From Leclercia sp. 29361 (lineage in GTDB: Bacteria; Pseudomonadota; Gammaproteobacteria; Enterobacterales; Enterobacteriaceae), in NCBI RefSeq assembly GCF_011290365.1, contig NZ_CP049786.1:558001-622000 (forward strand): 64,000 bases of DNA, given 5' to 3'. The notes beneath the pieces were generated by a model that made no database searches, was not told where the DNA came from, and saw only the letters and a list, made by a program, of their open reading frames with translations. Below are positions 11,455 through 28,097 of the stretch, in pieces (the first letter of the stretch is position 1; every line of letters begins with the position of its first letter). The position numbers and the translations under genes were made by a program.

Positions 11455-11458
11455 CGGC

Positions 11459-12217: not shown

Positions 12218-12484
12218 AAGATCGGCACATCCGCGCTGGAATTAAGGCCAAAACCTACCCTGTTTGCGCTGAAAAATCAATCGACCCGGCAGGCGCGGCC
12301 CCGGCTGATCGCAATAACGGCCCTGATGAGCATGGCTGTAAAATTTGACTTAAGTCATATCTGATGCTTATGGATTGCAATTAAAAAGATAGGCTGTGCC
12401 TATTACTCATAGGGTAATTGTTCTTTTACACTCATTAACCGTATGGCTTTCCGCATTTTGCATGGCTCGTTTAAAAGGTATTTT

Positions 12485-12847
12485 ATGACTGCTTCGAAAA
12501 CATGGATCTCTTTGGGTACAATTGCCAGTCCGGCTACTGGAACGTTATTTTCCAAAATTCTTACTCAGCACAATCATAAATATATTCTGTGGTATAACGG
12601 CGAGCAGCTATTTAAACCCGGCGACAAAATAGAGGTGTGTTACAACCGTCTATTCGTCAATGACGAGCTATGCGATATCAATATCTTGCAGATCGACAAA
12701 TACAGTCCCACCCTGTGGCGCGTGATGCACAACATGTCCAGCTGCCCCGGCCATCGCGAGCCTGACAGTACGACGTGCACTGCTACGGCAAAATGTATTT
12801 TTAAAAAGTGCCCCTACGGCAAGACGCGGGTCGCGGCAAATAATTAA
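12485..12847 (+). CDS. hypothetical protein with C-terminal cysteine cluster
   Basis: 120 residues from 12485 (AAAAGG six bases upstream); an upstream ATG at 12443 lacks a site. Not recognised. N-terminal half is beta-rich (WISLGTIASPATG, KYILWYNGEQLFKPGDKIEVCY); the C-terminal 30 residues hold four Cys and a His (CPGHREPDSTTC, CIFKKCPYG), suggesting a metal site or disulfides. No signal peptide or membrane segment. It converges on argI across a shared terminator. AT content is higher than its neighbours, hinting at separate acquisition. Confidence 0.65.
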   Translation: MTASKTWISLGTIASPATGTLFSKILTQHNHKYILWYNGEQLFKPGDKIEVCYNRLFVNDELCDINILQIDKYSPTLWRVMHNMSSCPGHREPDSTTCTATAKCIFKKCPYGKTRVAANN

Positions 12848-12872
12848 TATCCCGAGTGGATAATATAAATAT

Positions 12873-12899
12873 CAGGAGGGCGACAACCCTCCCGTGATT
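12873..12899. terminator. bidirectional terminator between the Cys-cluster ORF and argI
   Basis: AGGAGGG-CGACAA-CCCTCC hairpin flanked by AT-rich runs (TGATTTT on the plus side, ATATTTATATT on the minus side), between the stops of two convergent genes. Confidence 0.7.
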
Positions 12900-12912
12900 T
12901 TAAACGCAGAGA

Positions 12913-13917
12913 TTATTCACCCAGCGTGGCGACCATCACCGCTTTAATGGTGTGCATCCGGTTCTCAGCCTGATCAAATACAATACTCGCCGCCGACTCA
13001 AATACCTCGTCCGTCACTTCCATCCCGCCGTGCAGATCGAACTCCTTCGCCATCTGCTGACCCAGGGTGGTCTGGTCATCGTGGAACGCCGGCAGACAGT
13101 GCAGGAACTTCACGTCCGGGTTACCGGTAAGCGCCATCATCTGGCTGTTCACCTGGTAGCCGCGCAGCAGCGCAATCCGCTCCGCCCACTTCTCTTTGGC
13201 TTCGCCCATCGACACCCACACGTCGGTATAGATAAAGTCCGCGCCCTTCACCCCCGTGGCGACATCTTCGGTCAGGGTGATTTTGCCGCCGTTCTTCTCT
13301 GCCAGGGCGCTGCACTCCGCCACCAGGCTCTCTTCCGGCCAGCAGGCTTTCGGGGCCGCCAGACGCAGATCCAGCCCGGTGAGCGCCGCCGCTTCCAGCA
13401 TCGAGTTACCCATGTTGTTACGCGCGTCGCCGGTATAGACCAGCACCATCTCGTTAAACGCCTTACCCGGGAGATGCTCCTGCATGGTGAGCAGGTCGGC
13501 TAACAGCTGGGTCGGATGGAACTCGTTGGTCAGCCCGTTCCACACCGGCACGCCGGCAAATTCCGCCAGGGTTTCGACAACAATCTGGCCATGACCGCGA
13601 TACTGAATGCCGTCGTACATCCGCCCCAGCACGCGGGCGGTATCCTTAATTGATTCTTTATGCCCAATCTGGCTGCCGCTCGGCCCCAGATAAGTTACGC
13701 GTGCGCCCTGGTCAAATGCGGCAACTTCGAAAGAGCATCGGGTGCGGGTTGAGTCTTTTTCGAAGATGAGCGCGATATTTTTTCCAGTAAGCTTCTGTAC
13801 TTCAATCCCTTTTTTCTTATCGGACTTCAGCTGTGCCGACAGGGCAAGCAGGGAGTTGAGCTGTGCAGGGGTAAAATCGAGCAATTTCAGGAAGTGTTTT
13901 TTATACAGTTCAGACAT
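12913..13917 (-). CDS. argI: ornithine carbamoyltransferase
   Basis: 334 residues from 13917 (MSELYKKH), with GAGG 5 bases upstream; a longer frame from 13935 lacks a site. Makes citrulline from ornithine and carbamoyl phosphate in arginine synthesis. STRTR carbamoyl-phosphate loop near 56, [11 protein letters not shown] near 133 and HCLPAFHD near 273. Location (beside rraB, miaE and pyrBI) says argI, but the sequence resembles my recollection of E. coli K-12 ArgF ([29 protein letters not shown] end) more than K-12 ArgI. Tandem ARG boxes upstream indicate ArgR repression. Confidence 0.97.
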
Positions 13918-13946
13918 TTTATCCTCACATGGCAAAGGCCACTTTT

Positions 13947-13981
13947 TGAATTAAAATTCAATTTATATGTATCAATATGCA
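13947..13981. promoter_or_regulatory. tandem ARG boxes (ArgR operator)
   Basis: Box 1, TGAATTAAAATTCA (13947-13960), is a near-perfect ARG palindrome. Box 2, TGTATCAATATGCA (13968-13981), matches the consensus core at 11 of 14 positions. They are phased by 21 bp, i.e. two 18-bp boxes with a 3-bp gap, as required for an ArgR hexamer. They lie 30-64 bp ahead of argI. Confidence 0.93.
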
Positions 13982-14081
13982 GTTGCAACCCTGTTTCACA
14001 AATCTTTCTTACAAAGGTGGAGGCAAACACATCCGTGTGTGAAAATAGAAGTATCTGCCGCACTTTAAAGAGGAACGAGCC

Positions 14082-14504
14082 ATGGCAAACCCAGAACTGC
14101 TGGAAGAACAGCGCGAAGAGACGCGACTGATTATTGAAGAACTGCTGGAAGACGGCAGCGATCCGGATGCGCTGTACACCATCGAGCACCATTTCTCTGC
14201 GGATGATTTCGAAGCGCTGGAAAAGCTGGCGGTTGAAGCGTTCCGTCTGGGTTACGAAGTGACAGAGCCAGAAGAGCTGGAAGTGGAAGAGGGCGACACC
14301 GTCATCTGCTGCGACATCCTGAGCGAAGGCGCGCTGAAGGCAGAGCTGATCGACGCCCAGGTTGAACAGCTGATGGACCTGGCTGAACGTTTTGAAGTGG
14401 AATACGACGGCTGGGGCACCTACTTCGAAGATCCGAACGGCGAAGAGGGTGACGAAGAAGACGACGAAGATTTCGACGAAGACGATAACGGCGTGCGTCA
14501 CTAA
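14082..14504 (+). CDS. rraB: ribonuclease E inhibitor RraB
   Basis: 140 residues, very acidic, ending in a Glu/Asp run ([15 protein letters not shown]) before a short basic end. RraB binds the C-terminal scaffold of RNase E and changes degradosome composition and mRNA decay. Starts with [23 protein letters not shown] lies upstream of the ATG. Divergent from argI across the ARG boxes; miaE follows 45 bp downstream. Confidence 0.96.
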
Positions 14505-14513
14505 GTATGATTT

Positions 14514-14533
14514 GCGGCAGCTTCGGCTGCCGC
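14514..14533 (+). terminator. palindrome between rraB and miaE
   Basis: GCGGCAG-CTTCG-GCTGCCGC stem-loop with a UUCG-type loop, then CTACTTT. There is no long T run, so it may only partly terminate rraB transcripts or stabilise their 3' end. Confidence 0.5.
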
Positions 14534-14549
14534 TACTTTAAGGCAGAAA

Positions 14550-15308
14550 ATGGATTACCCGCAGATACTCGCCCCTGTTCTCAACTTCCTCCAGTGCCCG
14601 ACCCCGCAAGCATGGATTGATAAAGCCCGCGACCCGGCCAACCTGCCGCTGCTGCTCACCGACCATATGGTGTGCGAACTTAAAGCCGCCCAGACCGCGC
14701 TATTATTAGTGCGAAAATACGTTGCCGACGAGAGCGGTGCCGACGCCCTGCTCGAGTGGCTCAAGCCCTATGAAGCCTTTACCTTCCGTGAAGGCCCGGA
14801 ACCGGATTTTGTCGCCCTGCATAAGCAGATTGGCAAAAGCGTGATGCCGAAGACCAACGACCCCTGGGGCCAGGCGCTTATCGACAGCATGGTGCTGCTG
14901 ATTAAAGAGGAGCTGCACCACTTCTGGCAGGTGCGCGAGGCGATGCTCTCCCGCAACATCCCCTATGTCAAAATCACCGCCAGCCGCTACGCCAAAGGGA
15001 TGCTGTCCGCCGTGCGCACCCACGAGCCGCTGACGCTGATCGACAAGCTGATCTGCGGCGCCTACATCGAAGCGCGCTCCTGCGAACGCTTCGCCGCGCT
15101 GGCCCCGTTCCTCGACGAGGAGTTGCAGAAGTTTTATTTATCCTTACTGCGCTCCGAGGCGCGGCATTATCAGGACTATCTGACGCTTGCCCAACAGGTC
15201 AGCGATGACGATATCTCTCCCCGCATACAGCTTTTTGGCGAAATTGAAGCCACACTGATCTCATCACCGGACAATACGTTTCGCTTCCATAGCGGCGTGC
15301 CGGTGTAA
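14550..15308 (+). CDS. miaE: tRNA-(ms2io6A37) hydroxylase
   Basis: 252 residues. MiaE is a non-haem diiron monooxygenase that hydroxylates ms2i6A37 in tRNAs reading UNN codons. The helical bundle carries the metal-ligand motifs: Glu before LLTDHM near 30-37, EELHHF near 116, EARSCERF near 172 and SEARHYQDY near 205. AAGGCAGAAA precedes the ATG. Present in Salmonella and many enterobacteria between rraB and yjgM-like genes and, from memory, absent from E. coli. Confidence 0.95.
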   Translation: MDYPQILAPVLNFLQCPTPQAWIDKARDPANLPLLLTDHMVCELKAAQTALLLVRKYVADESGADALLEWLKPYEAFTFREGPEPDFVALHKQIGKSVMPKTNDPWGQALIDSMVLLIKEELHHFWQVREAMLSRNIPYVKITASRYAKGMLSAVRTHEPLTLIDKLICGAYIEARSCERFAALAPFLDEELQKFYLSLLRSEARHYQDYLTLAQQVSDDDISPRIQLFGEIEATLISSPDNTFRFHSGVPV

Positions 15309-15342
15309 ACCGGCATAGCTAAAGGAACAAGGATGCGTAACG

Positions 15343-16074
15343 ATGAGAAGAGCGTGGACTCGTATAGCAGTGGTAGCGGTTATCTCCGCAGCAGTGGCCT
15401 TCTGGGTTTATTACGACAAGCAGCGCCTGCAGAACACCCCCGAACATCGACTTGATACCGTTCTCAACGCCATGCCCTCCTGGCAGGTGCTGAAAGAGCA
15501 GGACCCCCGGTTTGTGACACGCATCCGTGAGCAGATCCTCACCATGCAGAAAGCGGGGGAGTCTGAGCAGGAGATCATCGACGTGGTCCAGCCGCAGATC
15601 CTCGCGCTGCAGATGTCTCGCCTGCAATATGCCCCCGACGCGAATGCGGTGGCCTGGATGACCATCAACATGGAGCAGACCGCCGCCATTCAGAAGGTGA
15701 GTGACGACGCCTGTTTCCGCTTCTTATTCCCGGCCGTGAAGGGGGGCGTCAACCCGATGCGTGTGCTGGATAAGCCGATGATGCAGCGCCGCCTGCAGGC
15801 CGACGCCGAGATGATGCGCGCGGGCTGGGGTAAAGATCGCCACACCGTTACCCCGGAGGAACATGCTGCCGCGGTGGATGATGTGCGGCCGATTATGCAG
15901 GAACTCGCCAGCCAGTACGGGGTGGCGATCCAGCTGCTGGTAATGCCGGAGAACGCAGTGGGCAAAGAGAAGCTCACCTGCGAGTTGGTGCAGGCGATGT
16001 GGGCCAAGGTGCTTGCGCTGCCGGAGCAGAAGGCGGCGAGGGTGATTCGGCTGGCGGTTACGGAACTGGATTGA
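15343..16074 (+). CDS. membrane-anchored hypothetical protein
   Basis: 243 residues. Short basic N-terminus MRRAWTR then one hydrophobic segment (about 8-24, IAVVAVISAAVAFWVYY) with no clear cleavage site, so probably an inner-membrane anchor with a periplasmic soluble domain. The rest is helical, with two Cys (CFRF near 130, CELV near 213). Family not recognised. Follows miaE by 34 bp and may share its transcript; leuX follows. Confidence 0.75.
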   Translation: MRRAWTRIAVVAVISAAVAFWVYYDKQRLQNTPEHRLDTVLNAMPSWQVLKEQDPRFVTRIREQILTMQKAGESEQEIIDVVQPQILALQMSRLQYAPDANAVAWMTINMEQTAAIQKVSDDACFRFLFPAVKGGVNPMRVLDKPMMQRRLQADAEMMRAGWGKDRHTVTPEEHAAAVDDVRPIMQELASQYGVAIQLLVMPENAVGKEKLTCELVQAMWAKVLALPEQKAARVIRLAVTELD

Positions 16075-16123
16075 TAGGGGCGCTGGTTTTTTGGGCACTT
16101 AGCGCGGTTTAGCGCGTCGCCGC

Positions 16124-16151
16124 TTGCATGGCGGCGCGCGACAGGTATAAT
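16124..16151 (+). promoter_or_regulatory. leuX promoter
   Basis: -35 TTGCAT (16124-16129), 16-bp spacer and perfect -10 TATAAT (16146-16151), 27 bp ahead of the mature tRNA end. Confidence 0.75.
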
Positions 16152-16178
16152 CCACAACGTTTCCGCATCCCCTTCAGT

Positions 16179-16263
16179 GCCGAAGTGGCGAAATCGGTAG
16201 ACGCAGTTGATTCAAAATCAACCGTAGAAATACGTGCCGGTTCGAGTCCGGCCTTCGGCACCA
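16179..16263 (+). tRNA. leuX: tRNA-Leu (anticodon CAA)
   Basis: 85 nt including encoded CCA. Acceptor stem GCCGAAG/CTTCGGC; class II variable arm CGTAGAAATACG; T loop GGTTCGAGTCC; anticodon loop TTCAAAA gives CAA, reading UUG. I recall an identical sequence for E. coli leuX. leuX 3' ends are classic integration sites for genomic islands, and an accessory region does follow here. Confidence 0.97.
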
Positions 16264-16278
16264 AAAGATGCAAAAATT

Positions 16279-16303
16279 AAGTCGCTTAAGGGCGGCTTTT
16301 TTT
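16279..16303 (+). terminator. leuX terminator
   Basis: AAGTCGC-TTAAG-GGCGGCTT stem-loop followed by a T run, 16 bp past the tRNA end. Confidence 0.75.
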
Positions 16304-16843
16304 GTGTCTGAGATGTGTTGTCATTAAGGTATCTTGCGCTTTTTCAGTCCACCTATTTCAGCTTATTCAATTTAAATTATTTGTTAATACTGATATATAA
16401 TATCTCCATAATTTTTTTAAATTGTTATTATAGTTGCCAGTTAATTATTTTTTATGCTCAAGAAATACATAAGCGCAATAGATTTATAACTTCTTATTAT
16501 AATAATTAACATTTAAAGGCATAATTAAGATATAATTTTCTGGGATTAAATGGTTTTTGCATAATTTTTTATGTGTATCTTGCAGAGAGTTTTCAGCCCT
16601 TTATGACTTACTTCTCAGTAAATGAATTAGTTAAATGTTATATTCGCAAAAGGTAGGTAAATGATTTTAATAGTTTAAGTTAGCTCTTTCATCTGTTGGA
16701 TTCATATTAAATAGTTTGCGGGCTGTGTAATGATGGATTTTATCAGCTAGTGTGATAATTTGGCGATATTTATATTTTATTATTTTTTTTCGTTTTAAAA
16801 TACATAATTGAAAATCTCAGACTGAGATGTAGAGGAAGGAAAA
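16304..16843. other. AT-rich gene-free stretch behind leuX
   Basis: About 540 bp, strikingly A+T-rich with T runs, and no credible ORF of more than 64 codons. No integrase gene and no repeat of the leuX 3' end were found by eye. It probably holds the promoter for the gene at 16844 and looks like xenogeneic, H-NS-type DNA. Confidence 0.6.
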
Positions 16844-17329
16844 ATGAAAAAATGGACTATCGAAGAAGACTGTAAATTACTCACTCTAACACGCCAACAT
16901 TTTTCATCATTGCTCAAGCATAAACGGTTGAATGCTACGATGCCATTTAGCCAGCTACTTTACACAGCATTTAACTCACCTGATCGTGATGCCGCAGCAT
17001 TGTTGTATCGACTCGAACAGGCAAAAATCCTGGCATTTGCTAGCCGTCCTGGAGGTGATCCCACTAAACAGCTGTTTCGCTGTCTGATAAACAATGATTT
17101 GGCGCTATACGATTACAGCCTCACCTTTCCCACTCTCAGAAAAGCATTGCATCCAGATACCGTTGCTGCAGCCCTAAACCACTTCACGATTAGCAATCCA
17201 CACGAACCTCTATCCAATACTATCAATGAAATTGCAAAAGCCTTGCATCTTGCTCCCATGCAAGTGGAAAAGATTCTGCTCGAAAGTGGACAAATAACCA
17301 TCAATAGTGACCTGCTCCCCGTTGATTAA
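16844..17329 (+). pseudogene. N-terminal fragment of an unknown island gene, cut by an IS element
   Basis: Reads 155 native residues and then enters the left end of the IS at 17308, adding SDLLPVD before a chance stop. The start is firm (GAGGAAGGAAAA before ATG). Helical, mostly polar; the first residues MKKWTIEEDCKLL recall a Myb/SANT-type opening, but no family was recognised. No signal peptide or membrane helix. Its true C-terminus is lost. It lies on the same strand as the helicase remnant on the other side of the IS, so the two probably belonged to one operon. Low GC compared with the argI side. Confidence 0.7.
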
Positions 17330-17378
17330 TACACCGCGATGTTAGTAATGTCTTCATAAGCCACATGAGGACATCCCC

Positions 17379-17642
17379 ATGAAGAAGCGTTTTTCCGACG
17401 AACAGATCATCAGTATTCTCCGCGAGGCTGAAGCCGGAGTTTCTGCCCGTGAACTCTGCCGTAAGCACGCCATTTCCGACGCCACGTTTTATACCTGGCG
17501 TAAGAAGTATGGCGGCATGGAGGTGCCTGAGGTTAAGCGCCTGAAGTCGCTTGAGGAAGAGAACGCCAGACTCAAGAAGCTGCTCGCCGAGGCCATGCTG
17601 GATAAGGAGGCGCTTCAGGTGGCTCTTGGGCGAAAGTACTGA
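17379..17642 (+). CDS. IS3-family transposase OrfA
   Basis: 87 residues. N-terminal HTH ([40 protein letters not shown]) and a C-terminal leucine-zipper-like coiled coil ([22 protein letters not shown]) for multimerisation. OrfA binds the IS ends. The end overlaps the -1 frame of orfB around GGGCGAAAGT (17628-17637), the expected site of programmed frameshifting to make the OrfAB transposase. Confidence 0.94.
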
Positions 17643-17665
17643 CGACAGACCAGAAGCGCGAAGTC

Positions 17666-18499
17666 GTGGTGTTGATGTGTGATGCGACCGGTCTGTCGCA
17701 ACGTCGTGCCTGCAGACTCACAGGTTTGTCCCTGTCGACCTGCCGCTATGACGCTCAGCGTCCGGCGGCTGATGCCCATTTATCAGGGCGCATTACTGAA
17801 CTGGCACTGGAGCGCAGGCGTTTTGGCTACCGCCGCATATGGCAGTTACTGCGCCGTGAAGGGCTTCTGGTTAATCACAAGCGCGTGTACCGCCTTTATC
17901 ATCTGAACGGGCTGGGCGTTAAACGCAGACGTCGTCGTAAAGGGCTGGCAACAGAACGTCTGCCGCTGCTCCGCCCGGAGGCGCCCAACCTGACCTGGTC
18001 GATGGATTTCGTCATGGATGCGCTGGCTACTGGTCGCAGGATCAAGTGCCTTACCTGCGTCGATGACTTCACAAAGGAATGCCTGACGGTCACTGTTGCC
18101 TTCGGGATTTCAGGCGTGCAGGTCACGCGTATTCTGGACAGCATTGCGCTGTTTCGCGGCTATCCGGCTACGATAAGAACCGATCAGGGCCCGGAGTTTA
18201 CCTGCCGCGCGCTCGATCAGTGGGCCTTTGAGCATGGAGTGGAGCTGCGACTTATCCAGCCCGGCAAGCCGACGCAGAACGGATTTATTGAGAGTTTTAA
18301 CGGACGCTTTCGCGATGAATGCCTGAATGAACACTGGTTCAGCGACGTCAATCATGCCAGGAAAACCATCAGCGAATGGCGTCAGGATTATAACGAATGT
18401 CGCCCGCACTCCACGCTGAATTATCAGACGCCGTCTGAATTTGCAGCGAGCTGGAGAAAGGGTAATTCTGAGAGTGAAGGATCCGACATTACTAACTGA
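17666..18499 (+). CDS. IS3-family transposase OrfB (DDE integrase core)
   Basis: 277 residues from the first possible start, but the frame is open from about 17633 and is probably reached by -1 frameshift from orfA. Contains an HTH_21 region ([15 protein letters not shown]) and the rve catalytic core: SMDFVMD (first Asp), RTDQGPEF (second Asp) and [16 protein letters not shown] (Glu). The C-terminal [12 protein letters not shown] is typical of the group. Full length and uninterrupted. Confidence 0.94.
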
Positions 18500-18528
18500 G
18501 CCTTGTATCTAATCCTGGGGGCAGGTCA

Positions 18529-20094
18529 CCAGGGGGGACCGGCTCACTCAAAGAATTGATGAGAACACCTGACAACCTGCTGAAATTACTTGAGCTGGCC
18601 TACAAGGCACTAGCGGAATGTAGCTGCAACCATGATACGCATAAAGATGGCTGCTACCGCTGTGTGTACGCTTACCGTGACCGTGGGCGTATGAAGTATG
18701 TGTCGAGAGATCAGGCGCGTCTTTTGCTTGCAAAAATCCTTAAGGCCAGCGCGTCGATACGGGCCATTGATTCCATCAAAAACATTTCACTAGATGCCAT
18801 GATGGGAAGCGAACTGGAAAAACGGTTTATTCACTGCCTGCAAGATAACAAAAACCTTCTCGTGAGCCGAAGTTATGCCCATCAGAATGCAGGCTGGATT
18901 ATTAATACCCGTACAGAACCAGCGATGAGCTGGCATCTCAAAGCACAGGTTGATTTAGGCGTTAAAGAAGGGATTGGTATCCTCAGCCGACCAGATTATG
19001 TGCTCTACCCCCTAATACAGTCAGAGAAGATAAAACCGGTAGCACTTTTCCTTGATGGTTTTGCATTCCATAAGGATAGCGTGTCGGATGATGTCCAAAA
19101 ACGGCAGGCAATTAAAGACAGCGGGAATTTTTGGGTATGGACAGTGACCTGGGCAGACCTTCAAGAACAAGGACTCAAACATGTTCAGGATGTCATGGGG
19201 CTTGGGCATAACCCGGATATGAAACAGCCTAAGTTTTATAACCTGTTCCATGATACAAACTTTGCTACGCTAGAGGGTTCATTCAGGGAGAGAAACAGTT
19301 TCGCACTGCTACTTGATTATCTCTCTGATCCCGGTAATCAAACTCTGCTATGGCAGAAAATGGCCGCTGCCTATACCTGGGTGTGGCTGGATCCTAAAAA
19401 GTCGCAGGACACCGGAATCAAACAAAAGTACGCCTATGAAATGCAGGAGAACGCTCCTGCTTATCGGTTGAATGCACTTTTGCCTGCTGAACCGTTTGTA
19501 TTTGGTGGTTTACTGGATAGCTGTAGTTCATCGCAACAGTTCATTGAGCTGGCAGCTGTTGTACCGCAACAAGCCATTAAGCAAAGCACAAGTATCGAAC
19601 AAATGAGAAATTGGCTAAGGTTGCATATTTGCTTTGACGATCGCTATTCCCAAGATAATGGCTTTGAAGCTGGATTCAACGGTTTCTGGCGGATGGTGAA
19701 TCTATTGCAGTTCTTGCCAGATATGACGTTTACCAGTCGTAAAGCGGTTAACTCGCCGCAAGAGTCTGGAACGGCAAAAATTGAGACGCCGGTAGTGGCA
19801 GAGATTCAGTCTGATGAGAGTTGGGCGGAGATAATTGAGTTTGATTTATTGAGTGCCGAAGAAATCGCTTTGCTTCAGTCATTATCACTACCTGCACCGA
19901 CAGTCGGATATGAATTACAGAATGACGATGGCGAAATTATTGCGGAAGCCGACCTCGCCTGGCCGTTACAAAAGCAAGCCATGATTATCGATAATCAGGA
20001 CTTTATTCCTTTATTCGAAAGTAAGGGTTGGCACGTTGCGTGCGGGCCTATTGACGAAAGTACATTGCAACATCTGTTCGGAGGTGACAAATGA
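18529..20094 (+). pseudogene. C-terminal remnant of a DUF1998-type helicase with a nuclease-like tail
   Basis: The native frame starts at the IS edge: codons before the first ATG (18559) read GGTGSLKEL, then MRTPDNLLKLLELAYKAL and a zinc cluster CSCNHDTHKDGCYRCVYAY (Cys-x-Cys ... Cys-x2-Cys). This is the end of the DUF1998 module of large DEAD/DEAH helicases found in several phage-defence systems (DISARM DrmB, Druantia DruE) and in MrfA-like proteins. After it comes a PD-(D/E)XK/Vsr-like region (about 145-225: RPDYVLYP, KPVALFLDG, KRQAIKDSGNFWVWTVTW) and an unassigned C-terminal half. The motor domains are gone. The stop overlaps the next start by 4 bp (ATGA), so the genes were cotranscribed. 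A protein from 18559 might still be made. Confidence 0.78.
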
Positions 20095-22208
20095 CGGTTC
20101 AAACGCCAATGGTGGCACTTTCTGATGGTTTTCTGGGGGCTTTTGCGCGGATTCCTAAAGCACAGCAAAAAAAGGTCCAGGAATTCATCTCCAAGTTCCG
20201 CCAGGATCCGACGAGTAATGGAATTAACTACGAAAAAATCCACGATGCGCGCAGCAATAACGTGCATTCCGTGCGTATTGATCAGACCTACCGGGGAATA
20301 GTCCTGAAACCCGAACAGGGGGATCTATATATGCTGATGTGGGTGGATAAGCACGACGAAGCTTATGACTGGGCACGGCGACATGATTGTGCAATTCACC
20401 CGGTTACTGGTGCGATTCAGGTGATTGATATCAGCTATATTAAACCCGCCTCCGAACCTGCTGTTGTTGATAAACCCAAACTCTTTACTGCTTACACGGC
20501 AGAACAGATCCTCGCGCTCGGTGTTCCTCCTGTGTTTATTGAGCAGGTAATGGCTCTTGTAGATACAGATGAGCTAAATCAGCTAGAAAGCGTGATGCCA
20601 GCAGAAGCCTGGGAACCCCTACACTGGCTGGCAGAAGGGCTGGAGTACCAGGAAGTGCTGGAAGAGTTTAACGATCATCATGATGAACCTGTTGATACCA
20701 ACGACTTTATTGAGGCGATTGAGCGAAGTAAACGTCGCTTCCATGTCGTTGAAAATGAACAGGAGTTACTGCAAATGCTCAATGCGCCACTGGAAAAATG
20801 GCGTGTATTCCTGCACCCGAGCCAGCGAAAACTGGTGGAGTCTCCGGCAAATGGTCCGGTACGTGTATTAGGTGGTGCAGGTACGGGAAAAACAGTCGTT
20901 GCGATGCATCGTGCTCGTTGGTTATCCCAACGCCTGGCCGATAAACCGGGTAAGAAAATTCTGTTCACGACCTTCACCCGCAACTTGGCGGCTGATATTC
21001 GCGCCAACCTCCAGCGTTTGTGTAGTCGTGATGAAATGGCGCGTATTGAAGTTGTTAACATTGATGCCTGGATGAGTGAGCAGCTGAAACGCCATGGATA
21101 TGATTTCCGCGTGGTGTATAACAACGATGAAGGGCGACGTAAATGCTGGAACTATGCCCTGCAGCAAGTCCCTACTGAAATGGGATTACCAGAGAACTTT
21201 TATTCAGAAGAGTGGCAACGTATTGTTCAGCCGAATGCTGTTTATAGCCGTGAAGAATATCTGAAGGTGAGCCGTATTGGTCGTGGCACAGCATTATCAC
21301 GTATTCAGCGTGCGAAAATCTGGCCTGTATTCGAAGAGTTCCGGGCACAAATGGCGCGTGCCAAACTGCGAGAAATGGGGGATGCCATGCATGAGGCTAT
21401 TATTCTGTTTAAAGAAAAACAGGTGCAATTGCCTTATAGCAGTATCGTAGTTGATGAGGCTCAGGATATAGGTGCACCGGCCTTTACCCTTCTTCGTAGC
21501 CTGGTCCCGGAGTCTCCTAACGATCTCTTTATCGTGGGTGATGGACATCAGCGTATTTACCGCAATAAAGTCGTGCTCGGTCAGTGTGGGATTAACGTTC
21601 GTGGGCGTCGTAGTAAGAAACTGAAGATTAACTACCGGACTACAGAAGAGACGCGACAGTTTGCTGTCGGGTTATTAACCGGAGTTAAGGTTGACAACCT
21701 GGATGGTGAAACTGATGCCAGCAACGATTATTTATCATTGCTTCACGGTGAAAAACCCATGATTACTCATGCTTCAGATTTTAAAGAAGAGGCTGAGACG
21801 CTTATCAAGCAAATTCAGGCACTGTTAGCCAATGATGTTCGTTCCCAGGATATCTGCATTACTTCCCGCACGAGGCATTCGAATGAGCGCTATGTATCAG
21901 CTCTGAATGAAGCGGGAATTGAAACTTTTAATTTAGGGAATGATAGTGGCGATAGTGATCAACGGGCTGGTGTTCGCATTGCAACGATGCACCGCATTAA
22001 AGGGCTAGAGTTCCAGTATGTGTTCCTTGCGGGTATCAACGATGGCGTTGTTCCGGAAGTAAAAGCAATAGCATCTGACGACCCTATTGAACAGCGCGAT
22101 GCATTATTTAATGAACGAGCGTTGCTCCACGTGGCTGCAACCCGCGCGGTAAAAGGGCTGTTTGTTTCTTCGTACGGTGTGCCAAGTACGTTATTAACGG
22201 TTAAGTAA
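20091..22208 (+). CDS. UvrD/Rep-like superfamily-I helicase with N-terminal RelE-like domain
   Basis: 705 residues. N-terminal about 95 residues resemble a RelE/ParE toxin fold (FARIPKAQQKKVQEFISKF, VHSVRIDQTYRGIVL, MLMWVDKHDEAYDWA), then a linker (100-245) and a UvrD-type motor: Walker A GGAGTGKT near 260, VDEAQD near 455, GDGHQRIYR near 483, INYRTTEETR near 512, MHRIKGLEF near 633 and AATRAVKGL near 684. Predicted 3'-5' DNA translocase. It overlaps the DUF1998-protein stop by 4 bp, so it was part of the same cassette, probably antiphage or DNA-restricting. Intact, but its partners are truncated. Confidence 0.85.
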   Translation: MTVQTPMVALSDGFLGAFARIPKAQQKKVQEFISKFRQDPTSNGINYEKIHDARSNNVHSVRIDQTYRGIVLKPEQGDLYMLMWVDKHDEAYDWARRHDCAIHPVTGAIQVIDISYIKPASEPAVVDKPKLFTAYTAEQILALGVPPVFIEQVMALVDTDELNQLESVMPAEAWEPLHWLAEGLEYQEVLEEFNDHHDEPVDTNDFIEAIERSKRRFHVVENEQELLQMLNAPLEKWRVFLHPSQRKLVESPANGPVRVLGGAGTGKTVVAMHRARWLSQRLADKPGKKILFTTFTRNLAADIRANLQRLCSRDEMARIEVVNIDAWMSEQLKRHGYDFRVVYNNDEGRRKCWNYALQQVPTEMGLPENFYSEEWQRIVQPNAVYSREEYLKVSRIGRGTALSRIQRAKIWPVFEEFRAQMARAKLREMGDAMHEAIILFKEKQVQLPYSSIVVDEAQDIGAPAFTLLRSLVPESPNDLFIVGDGHQRIYRNKVVLGQCGINVRGRRSKKLKINYRTTEETRQFAVGLLTGVKVDNLDGETDASNDYLSLLHGEKPMITHASDFKEEAETLIKQIQALLANDVRSQDICITSRTRHSNERYVSALNEAGIETFNLGNDSGDSDQRAGVRIATMHRIKGLEFQYVFLAGINDGVVPEVKAIASDDPIEQRDALFNERALLHVAATRAVKGLFVSSYGVPSTLLTVK

Positions 22209-22386: not shown

Positions 22387-22977
22387 CTATCGTTGGGCTA
22401 AGCCCTTACTCAATATTGCATTCAACCAAATTTCATCCCTCTGCGGACGTTTATCCTGAGTCAGCCATAACTCAGCAATCTCAATCTTCTCTACCGCCCC
22501 CAATTGCACCCGCAACCCCTTCTCATCCATATCCGTAAACCACCGTCCATCAACCTCCCGCTCACCATCCCCATACTTAAACGACACGTACCATACCCCT
22601 CCAGGCTTAAGCGCATCCGCAAGTCTTCGCATCACCCCGGGCAACTCAACCGCCGGAACATGCAAAAGCGAAGCACAGCACCAAATCCCATCAAACTCTT
22701 CCTTCCAGTCCACATCCGCAAAGGTCATCAACTGAACCGGCAACCCAGTATGTTCCCGCGCCAGCTCAACCATCGCTGGCGACGCATCAAACGCCTCCAC
22801 CTGATACCCCATCCCCAAAAACGCCTTCGCATCACGCCCGGAACCGCACCCCGCATCCAGCACCCGCGCCCCCGGGGCAAGATGTTTGGTAAAGGTCTCG
22901 TACAGTGAGGACATATCAACATTCACCGTCCCGTCGAAGAAGGTCTGCGCATTGTCCTGATAGTATTTAAGCGTCAT
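22387..22977 (-). CDS. class I SAM-dependent methyltransferase
   Basis: 196 residues. Rossmann-fold methyltransferase with motif I VLDAGCGSGRDAK (about 40-52), VEAFDASPAMV acidic motif II, and GIWCCASLLHVP/LKPGGVWYVSFKYG further on (Methyltransf_11/25 type, TehB-like). Substrate not evident; it lacks the (N/D)PPY/F motif of a DNA N-methylase, so a small molecule, protein or other substrate is more likely. The start overlaps the stop of the upstream HNH gene by one base (TAATG), so the two are translationally coupled. Confidence 0.88.
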   Translation of the reverse strand: MTLKYYQDNAQTFFDGTVNVDMSSLYETFTKHLAPGARVLDAGCGSGRDAKAFLGMGYQVEAFDASPAMVELAREHTGLPVQLMTFADVDWKEEFDGIWCCASLLHVPAVELPGVMRRLADALKPGGVWYVSFKYGDGEREVDGRWFTDMDEKGLRVQLGAVEKIEIAELWLTQDKRPQRDEIWLNAILSKGLAQR

Positions 22978-23990
22978 TAAAATGTGGCCTCGCCTTCGGC
23001 TTTAGGTTCCCAGATATGGAACAGCCTCACTTTGGCAGCGTTCCAGTTATTTTCAAGAAAGTTTTTCCGCGCGGCAGGCTGGTTTCCGGTCTGCTGGACA
23101 ATGGTTTCATGCAGCGGAAGTTTGCTCTGTATAAAGTACTCGTTGCGGGCATTTAATCGTTGCAGGAGTGTGCGTCCAGGCAGGCGCGCGAACTTCCCTT
23201 CAGCACCACGATTACAGCACTGGCAGGCCAACACCAGATTCCACACGCCATTGATATTGGCAACCTCATCGCGGGCGGCCCATGGGATAAAGTGGTCAAC
23301 GTCGGCCAGGTCAGGATCGCCCGGGGTCAGGCTGATGGGTTTGAAGCAGTAGAAGCAACGTCCTTTCTGGTAGCCGTTTAAACTGTCGCGACAGCTGGTA
23401 ATATTCACCCGGCGCGCGTTCACATGGCTGAATAGCAACTGATTATCTTCGTCGAACTCAACGCCAACAAGGTTGCGGGACACGCCCATCGCCCAGGCCT
23501 GCTCGACCAGGTTCCAGCGTGCAGTGGTTTCATAAGCCAGGTTCTGATACTGCTGACGCTCGCCCAGATGAAAGAAGTTATCCGTCAGGCGGATGCCGTT
23601 ATTAGTTTTACGCTCATCGATGAAAAAGCGTTTCTCGATCTCACCGCCATTCACATTGTGAAAGGCATCAATCACGTTGGCAAAACCGCGCCGTACCGTA
23701 GTTTCAATCAGCTGGTTATGAGAAACCTCGTCGTTATTAAACTGCGCGCAGGTATCCAGAAACTGGCTGCGGCTCGAGGTGATCTGCTTCGGAGCATGTT
23801 TCAGGTGTTCGCAAAGATGGCGGCTGAACGGCACGGCGAGTTCGTCGAGGGTGATGATGTCGCTGCCCGTCTTATCAATCTCATACAGGGCATGGGCCAG
23901 TGCGAACTTGTAAGATGCGACGTTCTTTCCAAAAAGAATCACCCCGCGCCAGTAGTTCTCCAGCGTAGGGTCAGCCTGGTAAAATTCCAT
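22977..23990 (-). CDS. HNH endonuclease domain protein
   Basis: 337 residues from the ATG at 23990 (AGGA 8 bases upstream; a longer frame to 24050 has no site). N-terminal 200 residues are unassigned and mostly helical; the C-terminal part holds an HNH nuclease: GRCFYCFKPI, DVDHFIPWA, NGVWNLVLACQCCNRGAEGKF, with both Cys pairs of the zinc ribbon and the DH/N/H catalytic set present. Probably a DNase. One-base overlap with the methyltransferase gene suggests a two-gene unit. The large N-terminal domain may sense or bind a target. Confidence 0.85.
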   Translation of the reverse strand: MEFYQADPTLENYWRGVILFGKNVASYKFALAHALYEIDKTGSDIITLDELAVPFSRHLCEHLKHAPKQITSSRSQFLDTCAQFNNDEVSHNQLIETTVRRGFANVIDAFHNVNGGEIEKRFFIDERKTNNGIRLTDNFFHLGERQQYQNLAYETTARWNLVEQAWAMGVSRNLVGVEFDEDNQLLFSHVNARRVNITSCRDSLNGYQKGRCFYCFKPISLTPGDPDLADVDHFIPWAARDEVANINGVWNLVLACQCCNRGAEGKFARLPGRTLLQRLNARNEYFIQSKLPLHETIVQQTGNQPAARKNFLENNWNAAKVRLFHIWEPKAEGEATF

Positions 23991-24136
23991 CAATGAAATC
24001 CTGTTACGGTGAGGGAGGTAGCTAACTACCGAAACCTGTAACAGGATCACATAACAAATGAAGGGTGATGTAAACCGTGAATCTATCGAATTGATGAATT
24101 TGTGAGGTGGTTCAGTGGATGGTACGCGGGCAGGGG

Positions 24137-24428: not shown

Positions 24429-24593
24429 CTACGTTATTCGTAGCGTAAGGTGAATACTGAAAACTACGTTTATCGTAACTCTGGAAAGAGGATCGAGTTT
24501 TTGTGAAATACCAATGTATGAAGGAGAGAAAATTCTAAAGCTACGTTTTGCGTAGTATCCGCTAAGTACAATAACTACGACTATCGTAGTTAT
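24429..24593. promoter_or_regulatory. four CTACG-N5-CGTAG operators between divergent HTH genes
   Basis: Palindromes at 24429-24443, 24464-24478 (last base differs), 24541-24555 and 24574-24588. The last extends to ATAACTACG-ACTAT-CGTAGTTAT and overlaps the ATG of the XRE gene at 24592. One of the two HTH proteins, probably the XRE one, should bind them and repress itself and the ner-like gene. Confidence 0.82.
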
Positions 24594-24900
24594 GAACGAA
24601 CTTACTACTCATAATCAAATCTTTAGTCGGCGTCTTAAAGAAGTGCGCCTGGCGAAGGGACTCTCTCAAAAACGTCTCGGTATCCTTGCGGGTATCGATG
24701 AGTTTGTCGCAAGCACGCGCATTAACCGGTATGAAAAGGGCGTCCATCAGGCAAACATCGAAGTTGTGCAGCAGCTTTCTGCCGTACTTGAAGTCCCCCT
24801 GGCGTATTTCTATACCGAAGATGACGACCTGGCATCGCTACTTATGAGCTGGATAAAAATGGATGCTGAAAAGAAAAAGCGCATTCTGGCGATGATGTGA
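24592..24900 (+). CDS. XRE-family transcriptional regulator
   Basis: 102 residues. Cro/C1-type HTH at about 8-68 (FSRRLKEVRLAKGLSQKRLGILAGI, RINRYEKGVHQANIEVVQQLSAVLEVPLAYFY) and a short C-terminal helix. No Shine-Dalgarno is visible; an operator palindrome runs into the ATG, so translation may be leaderless or weak and repression strong. Functions as a small autoregulated switch with the divergent Ner-like gene; no phage structural genes are nearby. Confidence 0.88.
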   Translation: MNELTTHNQIFSRRLKEVRLAKGLSQKRLGILAGIDEFVASTRINRYEKGVHQANIEVVQQLSAVLEVPLAYFYTEDDDLASLLMSWIKMDAEKKKRILAMM

Positions 24901-25105
24901 TCCCGTTCATTTTAAACCGCAGCGAGCGGCCAACGGCTTAACATAAAAGCGACCACCGACGCCTTACTTACTTATCTGATTGCTCAGCCTCTCGAAGCCT
25001 TCGCCGATATCACTCCAATACCTTTAATCAGGTGACCAAATTTACTCTGCCATTACCATCACCTATATTTTTAATGCACTGCAAGCCGCTCACAGGGAAG
25101 GGAAA

Positions 25106-26134
25106 ATGACGCAATACTGGTGGAAAGATTTATTGGATCGGAACAATTGCTGGCAGGGGCTGGAGCTGACGGTCCGGGCTGAGCAGCATCCCGGTCATGC
25201 CATGGAGATGCTCAGCGGCCACCATGGGCGCATGGCATTGCAGTTTCAGGGCGAGACGCTGTTCTGGGCCACAGTGTTGAAAGATCATTCCGGCGTCTGG
25301 CTGGTCTTTAATGCCGATCATCCCGGTCAGCAGGCGCTATTACCGTCAGTGACCTCGGCAGATGTGGAGTCGGTTAAAGCGCAGGGCGCGCAGGCATGGA
25401 CAGGCGAATGGTGTCGCTACTTTGCCCGGCGGCTGATGGATTCGCCAGTGCCATTGCTGACTGCGGGCCGTTGGCTGTTAAGGCCTATGGCACCGGTAAG
25501 TCACACCGCACAACCCTCTGTACCCATCGCAGACTGGCGATTTGATTCCCCCGCCAGCGCCGGAAATATGGGCTGCGACTGGGTGCTCTATGGCGAGGAC
25601 TTCCCTGATTTAGCGGATCCGCAAAAAGTCAGGTATGTAGATTGGTGGTGGGGCGGTAATTTGCTGCTGGGACGTTACCCGATAAACACCGATGCGGGGC
25701 GGCTGAAATGGTGGCGTAAAAAATGCCGTGAAGGCGCACTGCCGCCGGTGTTGGTCAGGCACATTGCCGGGCTGGCGTCTTTTGTGATCCTTGATGGTCA
25801 TTATCGTCTGCAGGCGGCCATTGCAGAGGGGATCCCACCGCAGTTTTTGGTGCTCAGTGAACTGCATGAGAGAGAGTTTCCCTCTGATCCGCAGCATCAG
25901 GAGCGTATTGTCCATGCGCTGGAGCTACAGCAACGTAAAAACCCCGCATGCAACGTTGAGGGGATAAATCAGACGCTGATTAATCTCTATGATACCCGCT
26001 ATCTCTATGCTTCAACTCATAGTCGTGCCCTGCTTGGCGACGGAGAAAACTGGGCGCGGGAAATTGAGGCTTATTTGCATAAACATCAGCTTGAGGAATA
26101 TCTGGGAAGGATCCTTGAGCGGGTGGAGGTTTAA
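25106..26134 (+). CDS. ParB/sulfiredoxin-fold domain protein, unknown role
   Basis: 342 residues. AGGGAAGGGAAA precedes the ATG. Around 200-255 a ParB-like segment is visible (LPPVLVRHIAGLASFVILDGHYRLQAAIAEGIPPQFLVLS), where DGHYRLQAA is the typical box-II-like stretch of ParB/Srx nucleotide-binding domains. N-terminal 150 residues are unassigned and Trp-rich (YWWKD, VDWWWGG). No membrane segment. Stand-alone on the plus strand with 205 bp upstream and 289 bp downstream free of genes. Function unknown. Confidence 0.7.
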   Translation: MTQYWWKDLLDRNNCWQGLELTVRAEQHPGHAMEMLSGHHGRMALQFQGETLFWATVLKDHSGVWLVFNADHPGQQALLPSVTSADVESVKAQGAQAWTGEWCRYFARRLMDSPVPLLTAGRWLLRPMAPVSHTAQPSVPIADWRFDSPASAGNMGCDWVLYGEDFPDLADPQKVRYVDWWWGGNLLLGRYPINTDAGRLKWWRKKCREGALPPVLVRHIAGLASFVILDGHYRLQAAIAEGIPPQFLVLSELHEREFPSDPQHQERIVHALELQQRKNPACNVEGINQTLINLYDTRYLYASTHSRALLGDGENWAREIEAYLHKHQLEEYLGRILERVEV

Positions 26135-26429
26135 ATCGAAAATGCGCTGAGGCTAAGAGCGCTGGCTCCGGCTTCAGTCGATCAGCAACCTTTAAAAAAT
26201 TGAGGTTATGAGTTTTTTTAGGCCTTTCAGGCGTGGGATGACATTTAATAAAAATGAATTAATTATTGGCTTTACGCGAGGCGTTAATTCAGTTCGATTT
26301 CCACTCATTTCGTTTTATATATGCACGATGCGTCATGCTTAATGCCCCCAACTCCGTTTATTAGTAGTTGCCTGACGTAGGCAAAGCCATATCATTCTGC
26401 CGAAACAAATCTCAATTTAGGGAATGAAG
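26135..26429. other. gene-free stretch
   Basis: About 295 bp between two plus-strand genes. AT-rich, including TTTAAAAAATTGAGGTTATGAG and a run of weak -10-like hexamers. It presumably holds the promoter of the following gene; no repeat, RNA or terminator was recognised. Confidence 0.4.
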
Positions 26430-28097
26430 ATGAAAGACGCGTGGCTGGATACGTGCTCTACCACCATCCAAAACTTCGTGGAACGCTCTACGAGGCTACA
26501 GCCAGATAATCTTGAACTGGACCTGGTCGAAAAAATCGATTTTGACTACCAGATTAACTTAAGTCTCGATTTTCGTATTAAGGCTACAGAATATACTCAG
26601 GTGGGGAGAGTCAGCCCCGGGAGCGGCACGCGGATTTTTACGGGTAATTTCCAGTACAACGAGGCTCTCCAGGCGGAAACCAGCGCGGTCTTGTCCCGGG
26701 CAGAAACACTGCGTGAAGCTCACGCGCTGGTCCTTTCCCAGCCTTACGGGGCTCTTGAAAAAGAGCAAGAGATCTATTCCCATCCAACACGCCTCTGTTT
26801 AATTGAAAACTGCACTAGCTGCAATGGACGCGGACAGGTCAACTGCTCCTGGTGCTATGGTTCTGGTCGCGTGAGCTGCACCACCTGTGGAGGAAGTGGG
26901 CAGGTACTGGAACAGCGAAGCCATTTCGATCACTACACCAATCAGTATCGCACGGAGAGCCACTACCGGATGTGCTACACCTGCACAGGCGGTAAGGTGA
27001 ACTGCGGCCACTGTAGCGGCTCGGGAAACCAGCGCTGTTCCCCCTGCGACGGAACAGGCGAAACAACCCGCATTACCCGGCTTGCCAGCGTTGCCGTGCC
27101 TCGTTACCAGTTGATCTACCATCGTGAAGATGTGCCGACGTTCATTAAAGATGGCCTCTACAAAGCGGGCATCCCGGAACTGGCAAGTTATGGCGCCGTT
27201 GAGCTGGCGGATTCCAGTATTGATGAGGGGTTTCGTAACGTTAATTTTATCTACAACGCCAGCGTACCCTTTGCCCGATTTACGAGCCAGTTACGTCAGG
27301 CTCAGCTTGCTGAACAACCTGTTAACTGGGTCGTTTACGGTCGTCATCCGCAAATACTGGATGCGGGACATGTCGTTGAGTTGATGCTGAAAAACGATCT
27401 CAATGAGCTTGTCTATCGAAGCACAAAAGGGAAGTTGCTGAACCCGCTTGTTGCGGCGGTTAGCCGTAAAACGGTGGCCACCTTTATGGAATCGGAAGCT
27501 CACCAGGATATGCTGGATGCGAACCGCGCGGGTAAATCCGGGGAGATGCTCCGCGAAGCGATGAATCGAGGAGTTACCACAACCTATATTGATGAAGCCC
27601 TGACCAGCCTGAAAGCCATTACCCAGGCGGTCCAGAACTGGTCGGTGGTGAAGTGGGCAATCTTCAGCGCGGTCGTAATCTATCTGTTTATGCCCCTGTA
27701 CACGGCCTATGGCGACTTCTGGTTCAACGACATGACAGGACGGGTCTATCTTACCCCGCTCCTGCGCTGGGATAACCAGCATAATTTACTCACTTCCCTG
27801 GAAATACTGGCGCGTTACTGTGGCTTATTTATCGCCATCGTTGCCATTGCGATCGCTTTCCTGGGTTATTTATGGCGCAGGGGATGGGTCCGCTGGCGAA
27901 TGGGTCAGCATCTGGCTAAGTGGGCGGTTAACAGGAAGATTTTACGTAGCGGCTGGTTCATGAGCTTTATTTTGACAAGCCTGCTCACAACGTCCCTGTT
28001 ACTGTTTTTCCCGATCTGGGTGACAAATGAGGGTGAACTGTTTGGGCAGTATTCCATAATTGAATTCATTCGCTGGAGTGTTCAGTTTATAAAATAA
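26430..28097 (+). CDS. membrane protein with DnaJ-type cysteine-rich zinc fingers
   Basis: 555 residues from 26430 (the ATG at 26424 is too close to AGGG). An unassigned N-terminal domain (1-125) is followed by repeated CxxCxGxG motifs between about 127 and 212 (CTSCNGRG, CSWCYGSG, CTTCGGSG, CYTCTGGK, CGHCSGSG, CSPCDGTG), as in the DnaJ zinc-finger domain but without a J domain. A soluble region follows (to about 400), then three hydrophobic segments near 407-430, 462-482 and 508-530. Likely inner-membrane with cytosolic zinc fingers. Function unknown; it may act in protein folding, assembly or secretion. Confidence 0.8.
   Translation: MKDAWLDTCSTTIQNFVERSTRLQPDNLELDLVEKIDFDYQINLSLDFRIKATEYTQVGRVSPGSGTRIFTGNFQYNEALQAETSAVLSRAETLREAHALVLSQPYGALEKEQEIYSHPTRLCLIENCTSCNGRGQVNCSWCYGSGRVSCTTCGGSGQVLEQRSHFDHYTNQYRTESHYRMCYTCTGGKVNCGHCSGSGNQRCSPCDGTGETTRITRLASVAVPRYQLIYHREDVPTFIKDGLYKAGIPELASYGAVELADSSIDEGFRNVNFIYNASVPFARFTSQLRQAQLAEQPVNWVVYGRHPQILDAGHVVELMLKNDLNELVYRSTKGKLLNPLVAAVSRKTVATFMESEAHQDMLDANRAGKSGEMLREAMNRGVTTTYIDEALTSLKAITQAVQNWSVVKWAIFSAVVIYLFMPLYTAYGDFWFNDMTGRVYLTPLLRWDNQHNLLTSLEILARYCGLFIAIVAIAIAFLGYLWRRGWVRWRMGQHLAKWAVNRKILRSGWFMSFILTSLLTTSLLLFFPIWVTNEGELFGQYSIIEFIRWSVQFIK

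What the first reader, a model, noticed from the sequence alone, without database searches (positions are those of the whole stretch)
16844..22208. IS-gutted helicase cassette behind leuX, a probable antiphage system
A 155-residue N-terminal gene fragment, an IS, the last 510 residues of a DUF1998 helicase fused to a nuclease-like domain, and an overlapping SF1 helicase, all on one strand in a classic island site. DUF1998 helicases are core parts of DISARM and Druantia; pairing with a RelE-UvrD protein and this first gene fits no system I can name. Intact versions elsewhere may be an undescribed defence system; here the motor of the large helicase is deleted.
Basis: partly seen in the sequence, partly recalled or inferred. 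Interest (0 to 1): 0.72.

Follow-up and report, generated by a model that had tools for sequence, protein, structure and literature searches.

The report
IS-gutted relic of two defence systems
This is the dead remains of two bacterial defence systems that are both already named, one against plasmids (ApsAB) and one against phages (ARMADA type II), fused when a jumping gene and a 19-kb deletion removed their middle; intact relatives show the two travelling side by side on one mobile element.

Summary
The genes are really there, but they are not one unknown antiphage cassette. Against an intact relative at the same leuX site (Enterobacter wuhouensis), the window holds residues 1-155 of ApsA, a 1221-bp ISSen4-like IS, the last 520 residues of ArmC, and a full-length ArmD. 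About 19.3 kb is missing: most of apsA, apsB, armA, armB and the motor of armC. ApsAB is a published antiplasmid Argonaute/helicase-nuclease pair (Nat Commun 2024). ArmABCD is ARMADA type II, an antiphage system in a 2025 preprint. The motif and mutated residues of those papers that I checked sit at the same numbers in the relatives (ArmD shifted by one in E. wuhouensis and the window). What I did not find in print is the intact array leuX-integrase-apsAB-armABCD, seen in Enterobacter, Mangrovibacter and Citrobacter, with apsAB where E. coli and another Enterobacter carry Druantia III. That suggests a swappable slot in front of ARMADA II and antiplasmid plus antiphage immunity on one element. 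Interest is modest.

The parts
16179..16263 (+). leuX, tRNA-Leu(CAA): attachment site of the island
   Evidence: ARAGORN; window 16000-16377 matches the leuX region of E. wuhouensis at 85.6%. No second copy of the tRNA 3' end in the window
16264..16843 (.). 580 bp A+T-rich stretch; in three intact relatives this interval is about 2.6 kb and holds a 433-aa phage-type integrase, absent here
   Evidence: Pfam integrase domains in L010:5028-6329:-; that integrase hits L018 and L019 at 95-97% but not the window
16844..17307 (+). apsA', first 155 codons of ApsA (antiplasmid helicase-nuclease), cut by the IS; the ORF runs on into the IS to 17329
   Evidence: tblastn 89% over residues 2-155 to the intact 1569-aa gene; profile of diverse homologues hits positions 2-154, E=2.8e-69
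17308..18528 (+). ISSen4-like IS3-family element, 1221 bp, inverted ends TGACCTGC.../...GCAGGTCA; orfA 17379-17642, orfB 17666-18499; flanks ATAG | CCAG, no target-site duplication
18529..20094 (+). armC', last 520 of 2113 residues of ArmC (YprA/DUF1998 helicase of ARMADA II): end of the Zn-binding domain plus the C-terminal region that the ARMADA preprint describes as a Vsr-type nuclease, often followed by inactive nuclease domains
20091..22208 (+). armD, full-length 705 aa (RelE-like N-terminus by the preprint, GajB/UvrD-like helicase); overlaps armC' by 4 nt
   Evidence: 95.4% to E. wuhouensis ArmD, 91.5% to E. coli ArmD; motif residues present

Best explanation
The region is a dead fusion of two neighbouring defence systems left at leuX. 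The ancestor carried an integrated element with the order leuX - integrase - apsA - apsB - armA - armB - armC - armD, as still seen in E. wuhouensis, Mangrovibacter and Citrobacter. Intact, ApsB (an Argonaute-like protein with a guide 5'-end pocket) would find plasmid DNA and ApsA (SF2 helicase plus PD-(D/E)xK nuclease) would destroy it; ArmA-D (Snf2 helicase, PglX-like methylase, YprA helicase-nuclease, RelE-UvrD helicase) would block phages without killing the cell. In this strain an ISSen4-like element now sits exactly between codon 155 of apsA and codon 1594 of armC; 19.3 kb between these points is gone, by recombination between two like-oriented copies or by an IS-adjacent deletion. The integrase is gone and no far attachment repeat was found, so the remnant probably can neither move nor defend. 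Shown here: gene identities, order in relatives, exact junctions, lack of a duplication, motif positions. From papers: activities. Inferred: ancestor order, path of the deletion, loss of function.
For: Homology at both IS ends runs to the base into the intact E. wuhouensis operon: window ...CATCAATAG|IS|CCAGGGGGGAC... against reference positions 10581 and 29870 of one contig. Same tRNA-Leu(CAA) beside the intact array in L010/L016, L018, L019; 17.4 kb collinear at 96.5% between Mangrovibacter and E. wuhouensis, 16.9 kb at 95.5% plus a shorter piece at 88% for Citrobacter; full-length ArmC and, directly behind it, full-length ArmD in both of those genomes. Residues mutated or marked in the papers fall on the same numbers: ArmA K136/D236, ArmB G605/N971, ArmC K110/D234; ApsA K221, E533, D1420, D1433, K1435; ApsB Y409, K413, Q431, K489, N743; ArmD K266/D454 in E. 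coli O157, 267/455 in E. wuhouensis and the window. In this genome no other copy of apsA, of the armC tail, no apsB and no armB (an empty answer without a positive control in that call) was found; armA gave only partial matches of about 30% to general helicases. Deleting any one of the four ARMADA genes abolished protection, and both apsAB genes are needed.
Against: The proteins were not compared letter by letter with the deposited ST38 ApsA/ApsB or NCTC 12900 ARMADA records; identity rests on motif numbering, lengths, gene order and, for ARMADA, on E. coli ATCC 8739 named in the preprint. The ancestor's order is inferred from other genera: in Yersinia proxima apsAB is followed only by a 149-residue armA fragment, and several genomes carry apsAB or ARMADA alone. 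Only 2 of 5 other IS copies have a 4-bp duplication, 3 lack one, so its absence at the window copy is weak evidence. Branch counts do not show clear relaxed selection: armC' 6 silent/4 replacing changes on the window branch against 10/2 on the E. wuhouensis branch; armD 18/5 against 14/2.
Confidence: 0.93

Rival explanations
1. One reading: one undescribed antiphage cassette made of the 16844 gene, the DUF1998 helicase and the RelE-UvrD protein.
For: All on one strand and adjacent in the window; in three other genomes the same genes lie in one array.
Against: apsAB occurs without ARMADA: of the E. coli copies (apsA in 147, apsB in 146 of 5426 genomes) I opened four chromosomal islands and one record of the plasmid collection, and none of the five stretches holds an arm gene. 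ARMADA occurs without apsAB in the opened stretches of E. coli O157, ATCC 8739 and Enterobacter G015. Each system has been shown to work without the other in print.
Confidence: 0.03
2. The leftover armD (with or without armC') still works here, for example as a lone RelE-type RNase/helicase or as a partner of another system.
For: armD is full length, motif residues kept, 95% identical to the intact relative, and replacing changes on its branch are few (5 against 18 silent).
Against: ArmA, B and C are each needed for protection in the tested ARMADA; no second armC tail, no armB and no close armA was found in this genome. Promoters were not examined.
Confidence: 0.1
3. The two fragments came from two separate islands and were brought together here by recombination between IS copies, so an apsAB-ARMADA array never stood in this lineage.
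For: Both systems also occur apart; five identical IS copies exist in this genome, which makes joins possible; the integrase found between leuX and apsA in the relatives is missing.
Against: Both fragments keep the order, strand and leuX site of the intact array in three genera, and no second remnant of apsA or of the armC tail was found.
Confidence: 0.12

Closest known systems
ARMADA type II (ArmABCD), Bell et al. 2025 bioRxiv preprint, PMC12458937 (abstract, sections 5, 7-11, 26 and find passages read)
   Same: Gene order Snf2 helicase - PglX-like methylase - YprA/DUF1998 helicase with C-terminal nuclease - RelE/GajB-UvrD helicase; tRNA-Leu island; all eight mutated residues at the same numbers in E. 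coli O157, and in E. wuhouensis with ArmD off by one
   Different: In the window only the last 520 residues of ArmC and ArmD remain; in three intact relatives apsAB, not Druantia III, stands upstream
ApsAB antiplasmid system, Zongo et al. 2024 Nat Commun, PMC11096173 (abstract, sections 9, 11, 12, 25, 36 and find passages read)
   Same: 1569-aa SF2 helicase + PD-(D/E)xK protein followed by a 743-aa Argonaute-like protein, frames overlapping; checked motif residues at identical numbers; tRNA-Leu island; the paper notes many partly deleted copies
   Different: In the window only 155 residues of ApsA remain and ApsB is gone; in three other genomes it is joined to ARMADA II, which the paper's text does not mention
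DdmDE of Vibrio cholerae (solved structures)
   Same: Helicase-nuclease plus Argonaute-like pair; the six best Z-scores for the ApsB model are DdmE entries (Z 8.2-7.6); the ApsAB paper links ApsA to DdmD by PSI-BLAST
   Different: No match of either protein to DdmD or DdmE among PDB sequences; the ApsAB paper reports no DdmE-ApsB sequence similarity and no MID motif in DdmE
Druantia type III / Zorya type II array of E. coli
   Same: Occupies the place upstream of ARMADA II in E. coli and in Enterobacter G015
   Different: In the 19 apsAB loci compared no DruH, DruE or Zorya match was seen beside apsAB; in Yersinia proxima a 2116-aa frame with DruE-like partial similarity to ArmC lies some 36 kb away, apparently on the same contig

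Membership tests
ARMADA type II | Strict order ArmA (BrxHII/Snf2) - ArmB (PglX-like) - ArmC (YprA-like) - ArmD (RelE-GajB/UvrD) | tested here: met
   Met in the intact relative E. wuhouensis and in E. coli; in the window only armC' and armD, in that order
ARMADA type II | Functional residues of the tested system (ArmA K136 D236, ArmB G605 N971, ArmC K110 D234, ArmD K266 D454) | tested here: met
   All at the same numbers in E. coli O157; in E. wuhouensis too, with ArmD shifted to 267/455, as in the window; the six ArmA-C residues are deleted in the window
ARMADA type II | Complete four-gene operon in the window | tested here: not met
   ArmA, ArmB and residues 1-1593 of ArmC missing: the window holds a remnant, not a member able to work
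ApsAB | ApsA motifs GFGKS 218-222, DELH 532-535, SAT 823-825, QAVGRVER 1140-1147, D1420, DVK 1433-1435 | tested here: met
   Met at identical numbers in the intact homologue; all lie beyond codon 155, so absent from the window
ApsAB | ApsB directly downstream with Y409, K413, Q431, K489, N743 | tested here: met
   Residues met in E. wuhouensis; ApsB adjacent in all 19 distinct loci with ApsA that I compared, counting L031 with ApsA in three pieces and L043 with only its last part near the contig end; absent from the window
ApsAB | Antiplasmid activity | not testable with these tools
   Published for E. coli homologues
DdmDE | Sequence similarity to DdmD/DdmE | tested here: inconclusive
   phmmer and profile searches of PDB sequences listed no DdmD or DdmE at E <= 10; the ApsAB paper reports a PSI-BLAST chain from ApsA to DdmD, not repeated here
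DdmDE | DdmE-like fold of the Argonaute partner | tested here: inconclusive
   ApsB model (pLDDT 63, residues 580-743 mostly below 50): DdmE rows lead at Z 8.2-7.6, other Argonautes 7.0-5.8, but unrelated lumazine synthase rows reach 6.4
pPIWI-RE three-gene systems | Pfam pPIWI-RE domains in the E. wuhouensis ApsA/ApsB | tested here: not met
   No Pfam family at E <= 0.1 for either protein

The most novel reading that the evidence does not exclude
The stretch in front of ARMADA II is a swappable slot: E. coli and one Enterobacter fill it with Druantia III, while another Enterobacter, Mangrovibacter and Citrobacter fill it with the antiplasmid ApsAB system. The leuX-integrase-apsAB-armABCD element is then one mobile package giving both plasmid and phage immunity, perhaps with synergy between the two (as reported for Druantia III and ARMADA II), and the window shows such a package destroyed by its host's own IS.
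Probability: 0.4. Interest if true: 0.55.

Novelty: new member of a known kind. Interest (0 to 1): 0.32.

Why it matters
As a locus it is a degraded copy of known systems. It matters in two small ways. It ties an antiplasmid Argonaute system to an antiphage array on one integrating element in several genera, a combination that I did not find in the texts and listings searched, so cooperation between plasmid and phage immunity becomes testable. And it is a base-exact case of IS-linked loss of ApsAB, which the ApsAB authors suggest may be favoured when resistance plasmids are under selection; here the same event also removed the phage defence.

Tried and rejected
Family libraries: the E. wuhouensis ApsA and ApsB gave no useful hit in Pfam (0 families each, E <= 0.1), PADLOC-DB 2023 (0 each), NCBIfam (0, and one weak hit to an unrelated family) and PHROGs (0 each), so these copies of the libraries miss them; that is why the pair first looked undescribed to me. 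The 161-codon fragment alone gave two weak NCBIfam hits far below their cut-offs (HigA antitoxin, excisionase), which I take as HTH noise. Before finding the ApsAB paper I considered a pPIWI-RE-like system (PMC3702460, passages read); a sample search for PF13032 found 0 of 150 genomes and rang in none of 14 controls, so it says nothing. The DefensePredictor paper (PMC13092281, term search only, 0 passages) holds none of five terms tried.

Viral contigs: by the pattern method no relatives of ApsA or ApsB were confirmed in IMG/VR (64 and 69 pattern matches, none confirmed). Phage records: none for the ArmC tail or ApsA. Plasmid records: 27 for the ArmC tail, one for ApsA, on a 1-Mb replicon. ApsB profile: 3 of 398 genomes of a phylum sample and 5 of 394 of an order sample. 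ApsA profile: 1 of 369 genomes of a class sample, the window's own, although the ApsAB paper reports relatives outside Enterobacterales, so that sample or the fast first look misses distant ones.

The ApsA core model was too poor (pLDDT 45.7) and was not used for a fold search. The nuclease domain alone gave no sensible PDB sequence match. A direct repeat of the tRNA end was not found elsewhere in the window. Branch counts of silent and replacing changes were too few to decide whether armC' and armD are under relaxed selection.
Full report
What is there. The window comes from a 4.94-Mb single-contig genome. The closest intact relative of this locus that I found is Enterobacter wuhouensis (G026 is 'same genus', and its contig length of 547,377 equals that of NZ_SJOO01000004.1). 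Behind tRNA-Leu(CAA) at 16179-16263 lie, on one strand, an ORF of 161 codons, an IS, an open frame of 521 codons and a complete 705-codon gene.

The last two genes. The 18529 frame equals residues 1594-2113 of a 2113-aa helicase, 92% identical to E. wuhouensis and 83% to E. coli. The 20091 gene is 95% and 91% identical to its intact counterparts. In E. coli the same two genes end a four-gene operon: Snf2-type helicase, DNA methylase, DUF1998 helicase, UvrD helicase. Of 5426 complete E. coli genomes 525 match the 18529-22208 stretch, 518 of them over 80% or more of it. In O157:H7 and ATCC 8739 the operon follows Zorya II genes and a pair of large genes; the preprint by Bell et al. (PMC12458937; abstract, sections 5, 7-11, 26 and search passages read) names the ATCC 8739 array Zorya II - Druantia III - ARMADA II. 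[quoted passage not shown] All eight residues mutated there fall on the expected letters in E. coli O157; in E. wuhouensis the six of ArmA-C do too, and the two of ArmD are shifted by one. Pfam and PADLOC hits fit: MZB and DruE-type matches for ArmC, DrmD/BrxHII for ArmA, type IIG enzymes and DrmMI for ArmB, GajB for ArmD.

The first gene. It does not belong to ARMADA. Its residues 2-155 are 89% identical to the N-terminus of a 1569-aa protein that in E. wuhouensis is followed, with overlapping frames, by a 743-aa protein and then by armABCD. Neither protein hit Pfam, PADLOC or PHROGs, nor anything useful in NCBIfam. In seven aligned homologues down to about a third identity the motifs DGTGFGKS, DELH, LSATSG, QAxGRxERxD and a C-terminal GE...D...DVK are kept: an SF2 helicase with a PD-(D/E)xK-type nuclease. 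The partner's predicted model is of middling quality (pLDDT 63). Its 47 Foldseek matches with E <= 0.001 carry Argonaute, PIWI or DdmDE titles, apart from four rows with only generic protein-DNA titles; a DdmE chain is first at 1.9e-11. On Z-scores six DdmE rows lead at 8.2-7.6 and other Argonautes follow at 7.0-5.8, but two lumazine synthase rows reach 6.4 and 6.2. The differences are small and middling Z is common, so I read this as 'Argonaute-like', with DdmE only slightly ahead.

The pair has a name. Zongo et al. 2024 (PMC11096173; abstract, sections 9, 11, 12, 25, 36 and search passages read) found ApsAB in a tRNA-Leu island of E. coli ST38: it removes plasmids, both genes are needed, it showed no activity against eight phages, and ApsA carries GFGKS218-222, DELH532-535, SAT823-825, QAVGRVER1140-1147, D1420 and DVK1433-1435, ApsB Y409, K413, Q431, K489 and N743. 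The E. wuhouensis proteins have these at the same numbers. In E. coli apsA is in 147 and apsB in 146 of 5426 genomes, annotated as hypothetical protein in nearly all rows shown. In all 19 distinct loci that I compared the two are neighbours; in one of these apsA is in three pieces (L031) and in one only its last part is present near the contig end (L043). That paper reports no DdmE-ApsB sequence similarity and no MID motif in DdmE, but a PSI-BLAST link from ApsA to DdmD; my fold result, if it holds, would add a link through the Argonaute partner.

How the fusion arose. Against the E. wuhouensis contig the window matches up to 17307 (reference 10581) and again from 18529 (reference 29870); 19,288 bp lie between. 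Exactly between them sits a 1221-bp ISSen4-like element (91.5% to an element annotated as ISSen4). The genome has five identical copies, this one included, and one at 91%. Two of the five other copies have 4-bp duplications; the window copy does not, nor do the other three. The join therefore looks like recombination between two like-oriented copies or a deletion next to one copy; I cannot tell which. The integrase of the relatives is missing and no second attachment repeat was found in the window. Elsewhere in this genome I found no other apsA, armC tail, apsB or armB, and for armA only partial matches of about 30% to general helicases.

What is new. In E. wuhouensis, Mangrovibacter plantisponsor and Citrobacter sp. 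FP75 the order tRNA-Leu - 433-aa integrase - apsAB - armA - armB is collinear at 95.5-96.5% over about 17 kb, and full-length armC and armD follow in the latter two genomes, overlapping by the same small step. In Enterobacter G015 and E. coli the place before armA is taken by Zorya, DruH and DruE homologues; Enterobacter G020 has apsAB and no ArmC or full ArmD; Yersinia proxima has apsAB followed by a 149-residue armA fragment, and a full ArmC-ArmD pair apparently elsewhere on the same contig. Of 99 relatives searched, 4 hold the ArmC tail, the window's genome among them; of 60 genomes of the genus, 3 hold apsA, the window's remnant among them. So the array rests on three genomes, found with a search that favours close relatives. 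The ARMADA preprint's main text has no mention of ApsA, DdmD, Argonaute or antiplasmid and the ApsAB paper's none of DISARM, Druantia, Zorya or methyltransferase. A paper search asking for at least three of ApsAB, ARMADA, plasmid and defense matched 32 papers; none of the 15 listed, which rank papers with more of the terms first, holds both ApsAB and ARMADA. A second search listed 15 of 16 papers without a further ApsAB-ARMADA link that I could see in the listing. Supplementary files and subscription-only papers were not read.

Verdict. The locus is a dead remnant of two named systems. The array in the relatives is a modest new variant worth a survey and a simple laboratory-strain test.

Noticed in passing
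window 22387-24050 (-): Next to the remnant, on the other strand: a small SAM methyltransferase (PADLOC mad2 match 3.5e-19 over 32-185) abutting an HNH nuclease gene (357 aa, weak PtuB/PDC-M01B HNH matches); could be another small defence pair.
   Followed up: no
window 24592-28097 (+): An HTH protein matching restriction-control regulators (PADLOC Control_protein 4e-24), a 342-aa protein with no Pfam family and a 557-aa protein with DnaJ-like CxxCxGxG zinc repeats (below Pfam's cut-off) follow in the same island.
   Followed up: no
L021 (Yersinia proxima) 10001-17641: apsAB followed by only the first 149 residues of armA, with a complete ArmC-ArmD pair apparently elsewhere on the same contig: another scar of apsAB joined to ARMADA.
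   Followed up: partly
L012 9068-15010 (Enterobacter G015): Downstream of an intact ARMADA II lie three further large open frames on the same strand (462, 641, 901 aa), unexamined.
   Followed up: no
L036 and L043 (Enterobacterales G075, G535): Distant ApsAB-like pairs (ApsA 32%, ApsB 28-29% identity by tblastn) that keep the paired layout, in L043 with only the last part of ApsA; useful for defining key residues.
   Followed up: partly
window 18529-20094, residues 427-504 of the frame: The last part of ArmC resembles the C-terminal part of ZorE of Zorya II (PADLOC 8.2e-10; 35% over 75 residues to E. coli ZorE), a shared end domain between two systems that can sit in one island.
   Followed up: no
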